Below, piece after piece: positions 1,020-7,705 of a DNA stretch of 28,153 nt. The first letter of the stretch is position 1, and every line of letters begins with the position of its first letter. Source of the DNA: a virus. The position numbers and the translations under genes are program-made. Under the pieces are notes generated by a model. The model had not been told where the DNA came from and made no database searches. It worked only from the letters and a program-made list of their open reading frames with translations. The stretch spans positions 1 through 28,153 of IMG/VR virus record IMGVR_UViG_3300042923_000321. One strand, given 5' to 3'.

Positions 1020-2225
1020 ATGGTTGTATCTTTAACGGATTATCAAAATCTTGTCAGTAACCAGGATCAACCGCGCGAGTTGTGGGATTGGACAGCGGCG
1101 TTCAACGCACTTATGCGGCACAATGATATCGTTGTTCTTATCCCGCCTGGAAGCTACTTCATGAGGTATCCCGAGAAGATCAACAAGACCAAACACATAT
1201 CAGGTTTCGGCGCTACCCTTAACATGTATGGCATTATCCAAATTCATGCCGATGATTGCGATATTGTTGGCGTGACTTTTGACGGGACAGGCTCAGGCAT
1301 TCGAAGCACCGAACACGCTATGATCCTGGAGAACGCCAATAATATCAGGATCGACCGTTGCACCTTCCGAAACGTTCGCAAAAACGGAATCCAGTTTTCT
1401 AATAATGGGCGTTGCTCCTGGGTGTGGATTGAGAAGTGCCACTTCGAAAACATTGGGTATAACGTGCTGGACCCGAGCGCCCAGGGCATAGGTATATCAA
1501 TACAGAACGCCGACCATGTCCGCATACGTGACTGTGACCTGGGCGACACTTACGGGCAGGGTGCTATCCAGGCTGTGAGGACGTATGATTTGTTGATTGC
1601 CGATTCCGAGATAAACAGAACGGCGTACCGGGGGATTAATATCTATGGTAACAACGTTGATCCGTATGATTTCATCCGTGACGTGCAGATAACGAACGTC
1701 AAAATCCGATATTGCGGTCACCACAACTTCACACCTAAAGGCATGGCAACGAACGGGATTTTCGTTCGCAATCCAGCCGGGAAAGTGGAAGATGTCAAAA
1801 TTCGTGACTGTACGATTGAGTACGTGGGCGAAAATTGCCTAGAAGGATCATTCGAAGCCTACAACAACACCCTGCGTTATTCCGGCTATTACGACCGATT
1901 CTCGACCGTCTCCAAGGAACTTGTTTATCTCCATAGCGGGGCGATATTTACGCACAACAAGTTGGCGTTCGGGAAAGAAGAAGGGGTCAAGATGTACGAC
2001 TCTCGCCGCGACATCATTGTCCAGGGGAACATGATCTGGGATTGTGGCATGGCTGAGATTTATGTCCATGCGAACGGTGAAGGTCAGGTGATTGAGAATG
2101 TCAGCCTGCTGAATAACATCATCCTGCACCGGGAGCGAATCAATATTAAGCCGATTGAAATCATCGCGAACAACGGTGGAATTGTCAGAAATATAACCAG
2201 TGAAAACAGCCTGGTCAAAATTTAG
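1020..2225 (+). CDS. Right-handed parallel beta-helix protein (pectate-lyase-like fold)
   Basis: This 401-aa protein opens with the signature of pectate-lyase-3-type proteins: a helix with LWDWTAAFNAL, a strand ending VVLIPPGSYF, then ISGFGATLNMYG. From about residue 75 to 395 it consists of roughly 22-residue rungs of the type NNIRIDRCTF, DHVRIRDCDL and EDVKIRDCTI, with Asn/Asp turns and stacked small hydrophobics, as in a parallel beta-helix. Such proteins often cleave or bind polysaccharide and serve as phage depolymerases or tailspikes. There is no signal peptide and no obvious virion-docking N-terminal domain. The start follows an AGGGAG site. The gene lies on the strand opposite the tail genes, so a virion role is unproven. 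Confidence 0.75.
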   Translation: MVVSLTDYQNLVSNQDQPRELWDWTAAFNALMRHNDIVVLIPPGSYFMRYPEKINKTKHISGFGATLNMYGIIQIHADDCDIVGVTFDGTGSGIRSTEHAMILENANNIRIDRCTFRNVRKNGIQFSNNGRCSWVWIEKCHFENIGYNVLDPSAQGIGISIQNADHVRIRDCDLGDTYGQGAIQAVRTYDLLIADSEINRTAYRGINIYGNNVDPYDFIRDVQITNVKIRYCGHHNFTPKGMATNGIFVRNPAGKVEDVKIRDCTIEYVGENCLEGSFEAYNNTLRYSGYYDRFSTVSKELVYLHSGAIFTHNKLAFGKEEGVKMYDSRRDIIVQGNMIWDCGMAEIYVHANGEGQVIENVSLLNNIILHRERINIKPIEIIANNGGIVRNITSENSLVKI

Positions 2226-2399: not shown

Positions 2400-2421
2400 A
2401 AGCCCTCCGGGGCTTTTTTTT
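2400..2421 (+). terminator. Rho-independent terminator after the leftmost + operon
   Basis: AAGCCC (2400-2405), the loop TCCG (2406-2409) and GGGCTT (2410-2415) form a 6-bp stem that runs into an uninterrupted T tract to 2421. It directly follows the stop of the CPxCG gene and separates it from the FtsK-type operon. Confidence 0.85.
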
Positions 2422-2483
2422 ATGCCTTTAGGAATATCTGTTACATGGGCACATACATATAGAGCAAAGGGAGGTTGATGGGC

Positions 2484-2696
2484 ATGACATTCACTTACAC
2501 ACCGTTTATCAAGTTGGCGGCGGTCGGGATCACTGCACATGTAATTGAACGCAAGTTAGAACGAGCTGGTCACGGTCACAAGGTCATTTTCGTTCGCATG
2601 GCTACATATGTAAGCTGTGCGCTCATTGCATGGGCAGAATGGAACGTAGCGCTTCGCTCTTTAGGTCACGTATTCGGAATACATGCGGGTTGGTAA
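2484..2696 (+). CDS. Small hydrophobic protein, 70 aa
   Basis: I chose the ATG at 2484 because GGGAGG (2469-2474) lies 9 nt upstream; the TTG at 2475 and ATG at 2478 overlap or crowd that site. Two moderately hydrophobic segments (about residues 5-20 and 38-55, the latter YVSCALIAWAEWNVAL) flank a basic stretch (ERKLERAGHGHK), so it may be a small inner-membrane protein. It sits upstream of the FtsK-like gene, separated by an AT-rich gap. A partner of the translocase is possible but is inferred from position only. The family is not recognised. Confidence 0.5.
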   Translation: MTFTYTPFIKLAAVGITAHVIERKLERAGHGHKVIFVRMATYVSCALIAWAEWNVALRSLGHVFGIHAGW

Positions 2697-2705
2697 CACA
2701 TACAG

Positions 2706-2744
2706 ATAATTATGTAATGAACTATGTAGTAATAATCATGTAAT
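2706..2744. repeat. Three direct ATGTA(A/G)T repeats upstream of the FtsK-like gene
   Basis: ATGTAAT (2712-2718), ATGTAGT (2724-2730) and ATGTAAT (2738-2744) recur at 12- and 14-bp steps. The outer two extend to ATAATTATGTAAT and ATAATCATGTAAT (12 of 13 identical). They lie in the only AT-rich non-coding gap of the + strand region (2697-2803). They could be operator half-sites or iterons for the downstream operon. Low sequence complexity makes chance repetition possible. Confidence 0.4.
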
Positions 2745-2803
2745 ACGAGCATAAAGTGTTGATAAGTCAATAAAAATCTAAAATGTTAGGAGCTACGCGA
2801 ACG

Positions 2804-4036
2804 ATGGTGAGCGGAGGGACGATTGGGTTGGTCGCGGCGGCGAAGCTCGCCGGGGCAACCGGGGCGGCATTGGGCGCATTTGCCATGTATAGAAGCATGC
2901 CGGATAGGGCACTACGTCGGAAGCTGGATAGCTTGTTCAGGACTGGGGATGTGTACTTGCGGTCCTATGGTTACAAGAAACGGGAAATGCGGAGTTACCC
3001 GAGCATCAAAAGAGTGACGATGTACCTTAACCGAATGGAAGCAGTCTTTTCTATACCCGTCGGCATGGACCCCGATGTAATCGCCAATAATGATTGGTTG
3101 TTCAAACAAGTTTTCGGAGCGGATGTTGAGCTTGACCCAAGTGACGACCAGCGAACGTTTGTCCTCAAGGTTTACCCTGGGACATTGGCATCATTCGAAT
3201 ATGACCTTGAGCTTGTACGTGAAATGGCTGAGGGGGTCCGGTTGCCGATTTACGCCGGACGTGATCGGACGGGTGATATCATGTACGACATGGTGGAAAA
3301 CCCTCACCTTTTGATTGCGGGGGAAACGGGGTCAGGGAAGTCGGTTGCGCTCCGTTCCATCATCACAACTTTGGTCAACTTGGCAGGGGATCGGATGGAG
3401 TTGTATTGTGCTGATCTGAAAATGTCTGAATTCCATTTGTTCAAGGGTGTTGCTCGTCAGGTGGTCACCGATGCTGTTGAACTTAACCGGATATTGCTTC
3501 ACATTGACCGGGAGTTGAAAGCCAGGGGGAAACAGCTTGAAGAATGCGAGGTCGCTCACATCGACGAATTGCCTGCATTTGATCGACCAGACTATATTGT
3601 CCTGGCAATCGATGAAGTGGCCTTGCTCAAAAAAGAGAAGGGGATCATGGACATCATTGAGAAGATAAGCGCGATAGGCAGGGCGTTGGGTGTGTTCTTG
3701 ATCCTGTCCATGCAACGTCCAGACGCTACCATCCTGGACGGTAAACTAAAGAACAACCTCACAGTCCGAATGGGATTCCGTCATGCCGACGATACGAACA
3801 GCCGCATTACGTTGGATAGCGGGGAAGCGGCTCAGATCAAGAACAAGGAAAAGGGGAAATTCGCGCTCAAGCTTGACGGTATAAAGTTCGTGCAAGGGCC
3901 ATTCCTTTCTATCCCGGATGCTCGGTCATTGCTGGAGCCATTCAAGCGCGAAGACTCAGAACCGCCACCAGGCACACCAGATTCCCTGCTGTTGGTTCCA
4001 GAAGAAGAATTCAAGGAATGGGAGCTGATCGGATGA
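2804..4036 (+). CDS. FtsK/SpoIIIE-family DNA translocase ATPase
   Basis: This is a 410-aa membrane-anchored ATPase. A hydrophobic N-terminal segment (about residues 5-27) is followed by a linker domain and then the RecA-like motor. The Walker A is GETGSGKS at residues 173-180, and the Walker B is VLAIDEVALL with D270/E271. LSMQRPDATILDG and the following MGFRHADD strand are typical of the family. There is no C-terminal gamma/KOPS-reading domain. It resembles the short FtsK-like proteins of phages and of ICEBs1 (ConQ-type) rather than cellular FtsK. An upstream ATG at 2783 lies before the AGGAG site (2788-2792), so the ATG at 2804 is the better start. The stop overlaps the next start (ATGA). 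The probable role is ATP-driven DNA movement at the membrane; the substrate is unknown. Confidence 0.85.
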   Translation: MVSGGTIGLVAAAKLAGATGAALGAFAMYRSMPDRALRRKLDSLFRTGDVYLRSYGYKKREMRSYPSIKRVTMYLNRMEAVFSIPVGMDPDVIANNDWLFKQVFGADVELDPSDDQRTFVLKVYPGTLASFEYDLELVREMAEGVRLPIYAGRDRTGDIMYDMVENPHLLIAGETGSGKSVALRSIITTLVNLAGDRMELYCADLKMSEFHLFKGVARQVVTDAVELNRILLHIDRELKARGKQLEECEVAHIDELPAFDRPDYIVLAIDEVALLKKEKGIMDIIEKISAIGRALGVFLILSMQRPDATILDGKLKNNLTVRMGFRHADDTNSRITLDSGEAAQIKNKEKGKFALKLDGIKFVQGPFLSIPDARSLLEPFKREDSEPPPGTPDSLLLVPEEEFKEWELIG

Positions 4037-4641
4037 ATACGCGAGATAAGGCCATCCTGGACGATCTGAGAAGGTTCCGGTGTTTGACAAGGGATGATAT
4101 TGCGGAATTACACTTTTCGCACACCAAGCACCCAGTCACACATACCAATACAGTCCTCAAGCGCCTGCGTAGGGACGGGTTAATCAAGTGTTCGACCGAA
4201 CGCATCAAGTATGTGTACTTCCCAGGTGAAAGCAAAATGAAGACAGACAGCCAGAAAATGAACCATTTCCTTGCAATCGCTCAGTTCTTTCGGGAGATAC
4301 GGGCGCATGAGCAACCACGGATATTTGAGGTGGAACCGAAGATAGGTCCGCAAGGTTTCGCGGAGCCGGATATATTCACGATATGGAAAGGCATGGCCTT
4401 TTTTGTGGAGGTTCAGCGAACAGTGTACACGGATAAGGTCATGCAACTGAAATTAGACAGGTATGAGTCTTTCTATAATTCCGGCGCATGGCAACGGGAA
4501 TCATGGCAACCGCCTGAAAAGAAGATATTCCCGAACATATGGATTATAGGGGAAGGTAATTACAAGGTTGTTAACAGGCCGTTCCGTGTCTTACAGGACG
4601 ACATACCGGGTCTGATTGCCAAGATACCTAAGAGGGGATGA
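4033..4641 (+). CDS. Replication-relaxation family protein (Replic_Relax-like)
   Basis: This 202-aa protein has an N-terminal winged helix (about residues 5-62), seen as ILDDLRRFRCLTRDDIAEL, a recognition-helix region and VLKRLRRDGLIK. The C-terminal domain has the pattern E101, PD at 112-113, then EVQ at 126-128 and a later basic helix. That architecture matches the replication-relaxation proteins of plasmids and Bacillus phages. The start at 4033 overlaps the translocase stop (ATGA) and has GGGAG 8 nt upstream; an earlier in-frame ATG at 4018 is less well placed. The tight coupling suggests it works with the translocase, for example by recognising or processing DNA. The biochemical activity of the family is poorly defined. 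Confidence 0.75.
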   Translation: MNTRDKAILDDLRRFRCLTRDDIAELHFSHTKHPVTHTNTVLKRLRRDGLIKCSTERIKYVYFPGESKMKTDSQKMNHFLAIAQFFREIRAHEQPRIFEVEPKIGPQGFAEPDIFTIWKGMAFFVEVQRTVYTDKVMQLKLDRYESFYNSGAWQRESWQPPEKKIFPNIWIIGEGNYKVVNRPFRVLQDDIPGLIAKIPKRG

Positions 4642-4648
4642 TTTGACG

Positions 4649-5071
4649 ATGAAGAAAATGATTATGTTTATTTTGGGTATTGGTTTATTGTTGGGGACCA
4701 TCGCATGTAATCAGGCTGTTGAAGGGGAGGGCGATACAGTGAACGCGAGTATGGTTATTGATCATCTGATTAACGAGGGCTTGGAAGCTGTAGACAGCCG
4801 GGATATGAATCAGAAAGACTATGGACCGTTACCGATGGTAGCGACCAGCGCCCAGGTGTTCAAGTTGCCGACCATTGGCGAAGGTATCACGGGTCATGTA
4901 TTTGTTTTTGAAAGCCAGGAGGACATGAAGAAGGTCAAAGAGGTTTACCAGCAATACGCCGCAATGGTTCCGGTGTGGTTGTTCGAACACGGCAATATCC
5001 TACTGCACCTGTCGGGTCAGGTCGATGAAGAGAATGCAATTGATTATGAAGAAGCATTGATTCGACTATAA
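4649..5071 (+). CDS. Phage-encoded lipoprotein, 140 aa
   Basis: The N-terminus is a textbook lipoprotein signal: MKKM, a hydrophobic core, then GTIAC with the lipidated cysteine at residue 20. The mature part (about 120 aa) is acidic and soluble and would sit on the outer face of the cytoplasmic membrane. The ATG at 4649 lies 11 nt after GAGGGG (4633-4637); an in-frame TTG at 4643 is closer to the site and is an alternative. It is the last gene of the + operon and ends 3 nt before the bidirectional terminator. Phage lipoproteins in such positions can block superinfecting DNA (as Ltp of TP-J34 does), but no homology to Ltp is evident, so that role is only a hypothesis. Confidence 0.75.
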   Translation: MKKMIMFILGIGLLLGTIACNQAVEGEGDTVNASMVIDHLINEGLEAVDSRDMNQKDYGPLPMVATSAQVFKLPTIGEGITGHVFVFESQEDMKKVKEVYQQYAAMVPVWLFEHGNILLHLSGQVDEENAIDYEEALIRL

Positions 5072-5934: not shown

Positions 5935-6215
5935 TCACCCTTGGTGTTGCCTAATCTCTTTTTGATTGTCTCATATGCGCCCGTACCGGACAGGCCGGAC
6001 AGAACACCAGCCCAAACCCGCAAGATAGGTTCCGCATCGGTGAAAGGATACAATCCCAGGGCCAGTGATACACCGACCACAACACTGATTGCCGGAAGGA
6101 TGTTCTTAGGCACGTTGAACATGTTTTTGATCGCTTCAACCACGAATGGGGAAACAACTGCAATGATGGATGCTAGTAATAGGACACTTGTCAAAAGGTC
6201 TTCATTCAGTTTCAT
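5931..6215 (-). CDS. Phage holin, A118-like family
   Basis: This 94-aa protein closely follows the pattern of Listeria phage A118 holin. A first hydrophobic span leads to VVSPFVVEAIKNMFNVPKN. A second is LPAISVVVGVSLALGLYPFTD, and a third contains VWAGVLSGLSGTGAYE, followed by a charged C-terminus. Holins of this type form lesions in the cytoplasmic membrane that release or activate the endolysin. I prefer the ATG at 6215 because AAGGGGG lies 9 nt before it; the ATG at 6221 overlaps the endolysin stop (ATGA) and is only 3-4 nt from that site. A dual start, as known for some holins that make an antiholin, is possible. Confidence 0.75.
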   Translation of the reverse strand: MKLNEDLLTSVLLLASIIAVVSPFVVEAIKNMFNVPKNILPAISVVVGVSLALGLYPFTDAEPILRVWAGVLSGLSGTGAYETIKKRLGNTKGE

Positions 6216-6217
6216 GA

Positions 6218-6553
6218 TCATTTACCCCCTTTGGATGTAGCCAGTCCCAATCGGTGCAGGATAACAAGCATCTTGGCAACCACTGGACCGACTTTCTTGT
6301 CCGTGATTACCGGACTGGAACCATCGATAGCTAATGTGTTGGCGAATGCGTCAACGGCTTCCTTGGCCCACGCCGGGACATCTGTACTTTCCAGCTTGTC
6401 AACTCGCTCAACCAACTTTTTAAGCAAGTTCCCTTGTTCCTGCATCCCCTTTTTAAGAACGTCCTTGCTGTTGGTCAATGCGTCAACGTCTTTGCGAAGT
6501 GTCTCGTTCTCTTTTCTCAAGTTGATCAATTCCTGTTTCTCTGTCGCGCTCAA
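6218..6553 (-). CDS. Candidate internally initiated C-terminal fragment of the endolysin (111 aa)
   Basis: Within the endolysin frame, GGAGGTGG (6559-6566 on the minus strand) precedes an in-frame TTG (codon 385) with correct spacing. The start sits exactly at the M23/coiled-coil boundary. Translation from it would give the coiled coil and terminal AWAKEA-type module alone. Several Bacillota phage endolysins are known to make such cell-wall-binding fragments from internal starts. This is a prediction from the ribosome site only. Confidence 0.4.
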   Translation of the reverse strand: MSATEKQELINLRKENETLRKDVDALTNSKDVLKKGMQEQGNLLKKLVERVDKLESTDVPAWAKEAVDAFANTLAIDGSSPVITDKKVGPVVAKMLVILHRLGLATSKGGK

Positions 6554-7705
6554 CTCGTCCACCTCCGTTTTAGGTAAGTTTGCGGCATAATAATCCTTTA
6601 GGTACTGGGTCGGCTCCAATACCCCGGCTTCGGTTGCTGTGTATCCAAAAGAAGGAGATGCAACCTTCCGAACCTCATAATGTAGGTGATTCCCCGCGCT
6701 CGCCCCGGTGTTGCCTTGGTTACCGATCTGATCACCCTTCGCCACCACTTGACCCACTTTGACTGTGGCGGCGGAGAGGTGGGCATATACATGTAGCCTG
6801 CCTGCATTGTCTTCAATGGCTACCGTGATTCCGTAGTTACCAAATCCCGAGCCAGGCGCACCATCTTTTGCATGCCGGACCGTACCTCCTGCGAATGCAT
6901 ACAGCGGACCGTTTCCAGGAGTCGTTACCAGGTCAACGCCCCGGTGAAACTTCTGCTTCCCAGTGATCGGATGTTTCCGCATCCCGAAAGGACTTGTTAA
7001 CCTAAACCCTTCAAATGGATTAGACACCGTTACACCACCCTTTCCATAACGTTCCCTCAAATCCTCATACGTCCCGTCGTACTCATTTAAATCAACGTAG
7101 CCGGAAACGCCGCTCACTTTGCGTGTGCCGCCCGGTAGATACCCGCCCTTCTGTCCGTCGCTGTACTGCCAAAAACGCCACCTGGACCATTTTCCGATGT
7201 CCTCCGGCCTGTTTAAGCTGTAACGAGCAACCCAGATATCATATTCCCCGCTTAGCCCACTCAATTTCTCAGCGAACGATTGTGAGGTGTAAAGGATGGG
7301 TCTTGCCCCGGTTAGACGTTCGACCTCCAACAAAAAAGCCCGCGCAATTGTTGTAATCGCGGCAGGCCCTAAATTATGTCTGTTGTCCTCGTAATCTAAC
7401 ACTGGCGGAAGTTCAAAGTAATCCTTTCCACCCAGTCGATTGTACTCTGTAGCCATGTTCTGGGCTTCCTGCTTTGCGTCTGACGAATTTTTGGCTACCA
7501 GGTAATGATATAGACCCACCAGTAAACCGGAAGATTTAGCACCCCTCACATTCTCTTCTGCGCGGTTATCCTTCATGTTCTGACCTTCGCTAGACTTAAC
7601 AAAGGCAAACCTGATCTGGTCGGCGGCTACTTTACTCCATTCAACCATTCCGTTGTGGTGGGAAACGTCAATCCCCTGGGCGTTCGCCTTGTTCCTTTCC
7701 TGCAT
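6218..7705 (-). CDS. Bifunctional endolysin: GH25 muramidase + M23 metallopeptidase + C-terminal targeting region
   Basis: This 495-aa enzyme has two catalytic domains. Residues 10-220 are a GH25 lysozyme: GIDVSHHNG with D13, PPVLDYEDN with D104 and E106, and VDLNEYDG with D205. They would cut the glycan strands. Residues 232-372 are an M23/LytM-type zinc endopeptidase with H254 and D258 (HRGVD), H309 (YAHL) and H340/H342 (GNHLHYE), all expected ligands present; it would cut peptide cross-links. Residues 385-440 form a charged coiled coil, and the end (PAWAKEAVDAF...AIDG) resembles short wall-binding modules of phage lysins. There is no signal peptide, so export depends on the holins. AAAGGAG precedes the ATG, which lies inside the holin gene (38-nt overlap). 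Confidence 0.93.
   Translation of the reverse strand: MQERNKANAQGIDVSHHNGMVEWSKVAADQIRFAFVKSSEGQNMKDNRAEENVRGAKSSGLLVGLYHYLVAKNSSDAKQEAQNMATEYNRLGGKDYFELPPVLDYEDNRHNLGPAAITTIARAFLLEVERLTGARPILYTSQSFAEKLSGLSGEYDIWVARYSLNRPEDIGKWSRWRFWQYSDGQKGGYLPGGTRKVSGVSGYVDLNEYDGTYEDLRERYGKGGVTVSNPFEGFRLTSPFGMRKHPITGKQKFHRGVDLVTTPGNGPLYAFAGGTVRHAKDGAPGSGFGNYGITVAIEDNAGRLHVYAHLSAATVKVGQVVAKGDQIGNQGNTGASAGNHLHYEVRKVASPSFGYTATEAGVLEPTQYLKDYYAANLPKTEVDELSATEKQELINLRKENETLRKDVDALTNSKDVLKKGMQEQGNLLKKLVERVDKLESTDVPAWAKEAVDAFANTLAIDGSSPVITDKKVGPVVAKMLVILHRLGLATSKGGK

What the first reader, a model, noticed from the sequence alone, without database searches (positions are those of the whole stretch)
2484..5071. FtsK-like ATPase + replication-relaxation protein + lipoprotein module resembling a coupling-protein/relaxase pair
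Seen: a membrane-anchored FtsK-type ATPase with intact Walker motifs, translationally coupled (ATGA) to a winged-helix Replic_Relax-like protein. A lipoprotein follows and a small hydrophobic protein precedes, all between two terminators and opposite to the late genes. Known: ICEBs1 pairs a short FtsK-like coupling protein (ConQ) with a relaxase (NicK), and Streptomyces plasmids transfer DNA with one FtsK-like protein. Inference: the phage may carry a DNA-transfer or DNA-positioning module whose job in a phage is not established. It could act in prophage DNA segregation, entry, exit or defence.
Basis: partly seen in the sequence, partly recalled or inferred. Interest (0 to 1): 0.6.

Follow-up and report, generated by a model that had tools for sequence, protein, structure and literature searches.

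The report
Phage DNA-motor and nuclease-fold gene pair
[quoted passage not shown] it resembles the DNA-handling half of a conjugation system, but its function has never been tested.

Summary
At 2783-4036 lies an FtsK/SpoIIIE-type ATPase (probable start 2804), overlapping by ATGA a 202-aa Replic_Relax protein (RR, 4033-4641), preceded by a small membrane protein (2484-2696). The pair is nearly obligate: in loci found through RR the ATPase is next upstream in 80/80 viral contigs and 75/80 host genomes; found through the ATPase, RR follows directly in 78/80 viral contigs. The small protein is a third core part; the lipoprotein is not conserved.

RR is a winged helix plus a PD-(D/E)XK-type fold (AF2 pLDDT 90.5); E101, P112, D113, E126, Q128, K140 are invariant in 109 diverse members. 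Papers place PF13814 with MOBC relaxases, which share this architecture. The ATPase model matches coupling protein TcpA and the FtsK motor about equally. A 12-13 bp repeat array precedes the operon in many relatives.

So 'coupling-protein/relaxase-like' is a fair working analogy, but ICEBs1 NicK is not the right relative, no secretion system is seen, and nicking or transfer is untested. Nearly all named hosts are spore-forming Bacillales, so vertical inheritance, including into spores, is a serious rival. FtsK and Replic_Relax near par genes in Bacillus phages were already noted in print.

The parts
2400..2423 (+). terminator-like hairpin with T run, upstream border of the module
   Evidence: terminator-like hits in this stretch are 4 against 2.5 expected, so weak on its own
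2484..2696 (+). small membrane protein (70 aa), third core component; RBS AAAGGGAGG at 2466-2474
   Evidence: tblastn matches in 38 fetched loci, directly upstream of the ATPase; a Bacillaceae counterpart of about 100 aa occupies the same place; hhalign between the two groups P 1.7e-4, probability 49%
2706..2750 (+). candidate cis site: three tandem 13-bp units (ATAATTATGTAAT / GAACTATGTAGTA / ATAATCATGTAAT) ending in the core TAATACGAGC
   Evidence: read from the sequence and repeat scan; the core agTAATACAAGC is the best de novo 12-mer in the Paenibacillaceae group. Function not tested
2783..4036 (+). FtsK/SpoIIIE-TcpA-type ATPase, 417 aa as called, probably 410 aa from ATG 2804
4033..4641 (+). 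Replic_Relax protein RR, 202 aa: winged helix (about residues 1-65) plus PD-(D/E)XK-type domain (about residues 95-175; E101, D113, E126-x-Q128, K140)
4649..5071 (+). lipoprotein-like ORF in the same operon; cargo, not part of the conserved module
   Evidence: phrog_8870; not conserved as a neighbour; unrelated lipoprotein ORFs sit directly behind RR in L101 and L106

Best explanation
The module is a DNA-processing and DNA-pumping machine that acts on the mobile element's own DNA. Proposed steps: RR binds the repeat array in front of the operon through its winged helix and probably nicks or opens the DNA with its PD-(D/E)XK-type domain; it hands the DNA to the adjacent FtsK/TcpA-type motor (hexameric by analogy); the small membrane protein ties the motor to the membrane; the motor moves the element's DNA across a membrane or closing septum. 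My best guess at the biological purpose is relaxase-plus-coupling-protein-like mobilisation of the element while it sits in the cell as a prophage, phage-plasmid or plasmid, using another element's secretion channel. Shown here: the predicted folds, the invariant residues, the near-obligate gene pair, the third gene and the repeat arrays. Inferred: DNA binding at the array, nicking, partner contact, membrane tethering and the direction and purpose of transport. The general machine reading is about 0.7 likely; the figure given below is for the mobilisation purpose.
For: Near-obligate pairing in both directions with overlapping or closely spaced reading frames. RR model: winged helix plus a fold whose best PDB matches are mostly PD-(D/E)XK nucleases (Bax1, McrBC complex, Can2/Cdn1, R.BspD6I), each with E > 0.001; D113 at the start of one strand and E126-x-Q128 at the end of the next is the usual PD-(D/E)XK order. 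Six putative active-site residues are invariant in 109 proteins below 90% identity. PF13814 is listed as the MOBC relaxase family (PMC5357655), and MOBC TraX is described as winged HTH plus restriction-endonuclease-like, with a binding site of five direct repeats apart from nic (PMC12857230). Motor: TcpA E 7e-24, FtsK E 2e-22. Repeat arrays before the operon. Presence on plasmids without phage genes in the parts viewed and on a phage-plasmid.
Against: No T4SS gene was recognised in the window proteins scanned or in the part of JNUCC32 examined. MOBC relaxases are reported with VirD4-type coupling proteins and never with TcpA in streptococcal IMEs (PMC5357655). Plasmid pLDW-2 carries this cassette beside its own MobQ relaxase and VirD4 protein. 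RR has Gln where the catalytic Lys of PD-(D/E)XK enzymes usually stands. A few RR genes stand alone on chromosomes (L130, L143, L155). The array could be just the operator of the operon. A phage already has a capsid for transfer.
Confidence: 0.4

Rival explanations
1. Vertical inheritance: the motor and RR move or sort the element at division, above all into the forespore, as SpoIIIE does for the chromosome, or drive resolution of element multimers. RR supplies in trans the DNA-reading winged helix that FtsK/SpoIIIE carry as a gamma domain.
For: The ATPase has no gamma-like domain: its C-terminal 26 residues are disordered, while RR has a winged helix. Named plasmid hits are all in endospore-forming Bacillales genera as far as the listing shows; named genome hits too, with one odd record, Pseudoxanthomonas sp. 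J31. All 15 positive genomes of a class sample carry Spo0A. ParM/actin-like genes lie in the flanks of 11 of 88 non-redundant loci, and ParA or TubZ-like genes in others.
Against: The Spo0A association is weak (326 of 399 genomes have it; p 0.045) and may only reflect host lineage. A nuclease fold with invariant residues is not needed for segregation. No sporulation promoter was identified.
Confidence: 0.3
2. Motor-nuclease pair of the HerA-NurA kind, used in DNA-end processing or in defence against other phages.
For: FtsK/HerA-superfamily motor next to a PD-(D/E)XK-type protein; HerA-NurA and HerA defence complexes are among the weaker fold matches of the motor.
Against: PADLOC gives no match for RR and only general ATPase matches for the motor (SspH, mad8, HerA). 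The motor is clearly closer to TcpA and FtsK than to HerA. The cassette often sits with plasmid maintenance genes, not in a recognised defence island.
Confidence: 0.1
3. RR is a replication initiator, as its family name and PHROG label say, and the ATPase helps replication of the plasmid form.
For: PHROG calls the family 'replication initiation protein'; a paper groups Replic_Relax and FtsK as plasmid replication helpers (PMC9658697).
Against: Elements that carry the cassette have other replication genes: DNA polymerases and a toprim protein in JNUCC32, a replication protein in pNCT2_7, RepFR55 in the B. arachidis plasmid.
Confidence: 0.1

Closest known systems
TcpA coupling protein of pCW3 and the FtsK motor (FtsK/SpoIIIE superfamily)
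   Same: Motor-domain fold (TcpA 6o1w E 7e-24; FtsK 6t8b E 2e-22), Walker motifs, one short ATPase per locus
   Different: No gamma domain; weak or no membrane helix of its own, with a separate small membrane protein beside it; no Tcp transfer genes recognised
MOBC relaxases (TraX of pAD1, MobC of CloDF13), Pfam PF13814
   Same: Pfam family above cut-off; winged helix plus restriction-endonuclease-like fold; next to a motor ATPase; repeat array nearby (literature: PMC12857230, PMC5357655)
   Different: About 200 aa; E-x-Q where two distant PF13814 proteins have E-x-D; partner is FtsK/TcpA-like, not VirD4; no transfer ever shown
   Same: Order: short FtsK-like ATPase, then DNA-processing protein
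   Different: NicK is a Rep_trans protein (PMC12857230); RR has no match to that family
FtsK plus Replic_Relax genes already annotated in Bacillus phages Novomoskovsk and Bolokhovo (PMC9658697); type IV secretion protein plus replication-relaxation gene in Thrax phages (PMC9703825)
   Same: ATPase and Replic_Relax genes in temperate or plasmid-like phages, near par genes
   Different: Those papers give annotation only; in the passages read there is no analysis of fold, invariant residues, the third gene, repeat arrays or range
HerA-NurA
   Same: Motor of the same superfamily with a nuclease partner
   Different: Motor much closer to TcpA/FtsK; NurA is not among the RR matches listed

Membership tests
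FtsK/SpoIIIE-TcpA ATPases | PF01580 match with Walker A and B | tested here: met
   (63.9 bits, cut-off 24); Walker A G180, G183, G185, K186, S187 and Walker B D277-E278 invariant
FtsK/SpoIIIE-TcpA ATPases | motor-domain fold of TcpA/FtsK | tested here: met
FtsK/SpoIIIE DNA translocases (full type) | C-terminal gamma winged-helix domain | tested here: not met
   model ends in a disordered tail, residues 392-417
TcpA coupling proteins | N-terminal membrane helices | tested here: inconclusive
   one weak helix in the window and Paenibacillaceae members, none in most Bacillaceae members
MOBC relaxases | PF13814 above curated cut-off | tested here: met
   50.8 bits, cut-off 25.3
MOBC relaxases | winged helix plus restriction-endonuclease-like fold | tested here: met
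   AF2 pLDDT 90.5; nuclease-fold and winged-helix matches, individually weak E-values
MOBC relaxases | acidic active-site residues | tested here: inconclusive
   E101, D113, E126, Q128, K140 invariant in 109 proteins, but direct comparison with TraX was not possible: PMC3746933 not held, CloDF13 record unusable for this
MOBC relaxases | VirD4-type coupling protein as partner | tested here: not met
   partner is FtsK/TcpA-like in all intact pairs
MOBC relaxases | oriT with direct repeats | tested here: inconclusive
   repeat arrays exist before the operon; function unknown
MOBC relaxases | site-specific nicking and conjugal transfer | not testable with these tools
   needs experiment
ICEBs1-type MOBT (NicK) relaxases | Rep_trans (PF02486) domain | tested here: not met
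   no such match in the Pfam scan
Known anti-phage defence systems | match of both proteins to PADLOC models | tested here: not met
   none for RR, only general ATPase matches for the motor

The most novel reading that the evidence does not exclude
A so far unrecognised, self-contained DNA-transport cassette (membrane tether, TcpA/FtsK-type motor, MOBC-like DNA-processing protein and a cis repeat site) is shared by phages, phage-plasmids and plasmids of spore-forming Bacillales and lets a dormant phage genome travel either through a helper's conjugation channel or into the spore, as a second route besides the virion.
Probability: 0.25. Interest if true: 0.75.

Novelty: new variant of a known kind. 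Interest (0 to 1): 0.5.

Why it matters
The cassette is common in phages and plasmids of Bacillus, Priestia, Geobacillus, Paenibacillus and relatives, yet both genes carry uninformative or misleading names (cell division protein, replication-relaxation protein), and MOB-suite calls most of the plasmids non-mobilizable. If it mobilises DNA, many elements now counted as immobile are mobile and phages have a second transfer route. If it serves inheritance into spores, it would be an element-borne counterpart of SpoIIIE. Both ideas can be tested with one deletion.

Tried and rejected
ICEBs1-like ConQ-NicK: rejected, RR is not Rep_trans. Lipoprotein as a module member: rejected. Single-strand hairpin (oriT-like) at 2690-2800: no more stable than shuffles, z +1.12. 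Comparison with CloDF13 MobC: no usable MobC ORF recognised in the held record. pGIAK1, Thrax1, PBC2 and Cherry records: not held under the accessions tried. Francia 2013 paper: not held. RR by sequence against PDB: no match. Scan of genome contigs with the more diverse alignment A1 failed for lack of conserved stretches, so the narrower A3 was used. The TAC-N4-GTA array scan does not pick out the window's own array as its best site, so the window's array rests on its sequence and on the Paenibacillaceae motif. Sporulation link by Spo0A: only p 0.045. Mirror-tree correlation of the pair r 0.54 over 83 loci: compatible with co-inheritance, not decisive.

Full report
What is in the window. The window is a 28,153-base virus record. 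Its minus strand carries late genes of a contractile-tailed phage: terminase large subunit, portal, head protease, major head protein, tail sheath, tape measure, baseplate, tail fibre, holin and a GH25-M23 endolysin. On the plus strand at 2484-5071 lie four ORFs: a 70-aa hydrophobic protein, an FtsK/SpoIIIE-type ATPase, a Replic_Relax protein (RR) and a lipoprotein-like ORF. ATPase and RR overlap by ATGA at 4033-4036. An RBS at 2786-2792 lies inside the called ATPase ORF, so translation probably starts at ATG 2804 (inference from sequence).

Is the set real and conserved? Yes. Relatives of RR were sought in two collections without asking for the ATPase. In the 80 viral loci an ATPase of the same subfamily lies directly upstream on the same strand in 80 of 80 (99 of 99 when the window, L003 and the annotated plasmid and phage loci L004-L020 are added; these overlap in part, and some of L004-L020 came in through ATPase hits). 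In 80 loci of the genome collection it is intact in 75; L108 keeps only a fragment of the ATPase, and four have none. Starting from the ATPase, 78 of 80 viral loci have RR directly behind it and one more has it after a 0.6 kb interruption. Many of the viral loci are near-duplicates, so these counts are not independent events, but the species-level genome set says the same.

Third gene. The small upstream protein matches 38 of the fetched loci at the same position. Bacillaceae members have a protein of roughly 65-145 aa there; profile comparison of the two groups covers the two hydrophobic stretches (P 1.7e-4, probability 49%). In the Bacillaceae members the ATPase mostly lacks any N-terminal membrane helix, so the membrane contact probably comes from the small protein. 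The lipoprotein is not conserved; L101 and L106 have unrelated lipoprotein ORFs at that spot, so it looks like a cargo slot.

Structure. The AF2 model of RR (pLDDT 90.5, pTM 0.86) shows an N-terminal winged helix and a C-terminal domain. The best PDB matches of the whole model are mostly PD-(D/E)XK nucleases (Bax1, McrBC complex, Can2, Cdn1, R.BspD6I small subunit) and winged-helix regulators, none below E 0.001; that these proteins are PD-(D/E)XK enzymes is my own knowledge. R4, D5, R44, Y62, K75, H78, E101, P112, D113, E126, Q128 and K140 are invariant in 109 proteins that are less than 90% identical. D113, E126 and Q128 stand where PD-(D/E)XK enzymes have D, E and K. From my own knowledge, BglII is an active enzyme with Gln in place of Lys; I did not check this here. 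The ATPase model (pLDDT 87.0) matches TcpA of pCW3 first (E 7e-24) and FtsK motor structures next (E 2e-22, with slightly higher TM-scores), so it cannot be assigned to one of them. It has no gamma domain.

Literature. PF13814 is treated as the MOBC relaxase family, with VirD4 and never TcpA partners, in streptococcal IMEs (PMC5357655). MOBC relaxases are related to PD-(D/E)XK restriction endonucleases; TraX has a winged HTH and binds five direct repeats 70-120 bp from nic (PMC12857230). A paper on Bacillus pumilus phages already notes Replic_Relax and FtsK genes near plasmid segregation genes (PMC9658697), and Thrax phages carry a type IV secretion protein next to a replication-relaxation protein (PMC9703825). 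A review suggested that FtsK/SpoIIIE of B. cereus phages may act in DNA translocation or sporulation (PMC4113786). The pair as such is therefore not a discovery; its fold, third gene, near-obligate linkage, cis repeats and range are, as far as these searches show, not described.

Candidate cis site. Between the small gene and the ATPase the window has three 13-bp units followed by TAATACGAGC (2706-2750). De novo motif search finds agTAATACAAGC as the best 12-mer in the Paenibacillaceae group (score 69.8, shuffled 33.6) and, with ribosome-binding sites masked, AcCaagGtAgCtAC in the Bacillaceae group (126.6, shuffled 41.2). SpaA1 has many TACC(A)AGGTA-type palindromes, often at 12-bp steps, before the operon. 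A scan for TAC-N4-GTA clusters, a motif chosen after seeing the first loci, puts the strongest cluster of a locus in the region upstream of the ATPase in 70 of 99 loci (about 12 expected; redundant set), and in 29 of 80 genome loci (8.7 expected), 11 of 16 among strong clusters. Some genome loci duplicate viral ones. The array may be an RR binding site, a centromere, or simply an operator.

Who carries it. Named plasmid hits listed are Priestia, Bacillus, Geobacillus, Parageobacillus, Brevibacillus, Paenibacillus, Sutcliffiella, Mangrovibacillus, Anoxybacillus, Cytobacillus and Pontibacillus, with a tail of records not listed by name. Genome hits are Bacillales, except one record labelled Pseudoxanthomonas, probably contamination (inference). 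Two phages name Staphylococcus (SpaA1) and Stenotrophomonas (TS-12) as host. Carriers include ordinary plasmids (pBM400, pNCT2_7), a conjugative plasmid that also has MobQ and VirD4 genes (pLDW-2), a phage-plasmid (JNUCC32; its first 11.7 kb were not viewed) and prophage-like loci. ParM-like genes lie in the flanks of 11 of 88 non-redundant loci, in several directly upstream (ALP_N matches).

Conclusion. The module works most like the DNA-processing and DNA-pumping half of a mobilisation system: a MOBC-like protein plus a TcpA/FtsK-like motor plus a membrane part. It fails one MOBC feature (VirD4 partner), and nicking and transfer are untested, so I do not file it as a MOBC mobilisation system. 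Vertical inheritance, including into spores, is nearly as likely on present evidence.

Noticed in passing
L130, L143, L155 (RR at about 5998-6609): Chromosomal stand-alone RR genes without ATPase, each followed by an XRE-type regulator gene; the active-site residues are kept.
   Followed up: partly
L023, L025, L027, L028, L030, L034, L036, L046, L109 upstream of the cassette: Actin-like (ParM/ALP) gene, mostly with a small ParR-like gene behind it, directly ahead of the cassette.
   Followed up: partly
window 4649-5071; L101 6662-7213; L106 6655-7200; L021 6416-6721: Lipoprotein-like ORFs recur behind RR without being conserved, like a cargo slot; possible superinfection-exclusion genes (guess).
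   Followed up: no
L006, L019, L148, L153, L163, L173, L174 upstream of the operon: A second conserved element containing ATAGGCTATTAACACGAAAGC in some Bacillaceae loci.
   Followed up: no
L109 (record named Pseudoxanthomonas sp. J31): The contig carries a Paenibacillus-type cassette; probably contamination of that genome.
   Followed up: no
window 1020-2225: Right-handed beta-helix protein (tail-spike-like) on the plus strand, away from the late genes on the minus strand.
   Followed up: no
PLSDB typing of plasmids with the cassette: MOB-suite of 147 RR-carrying plasmids non-mobilizable; this cassette is probably not recognised by it.
   Followed up: no
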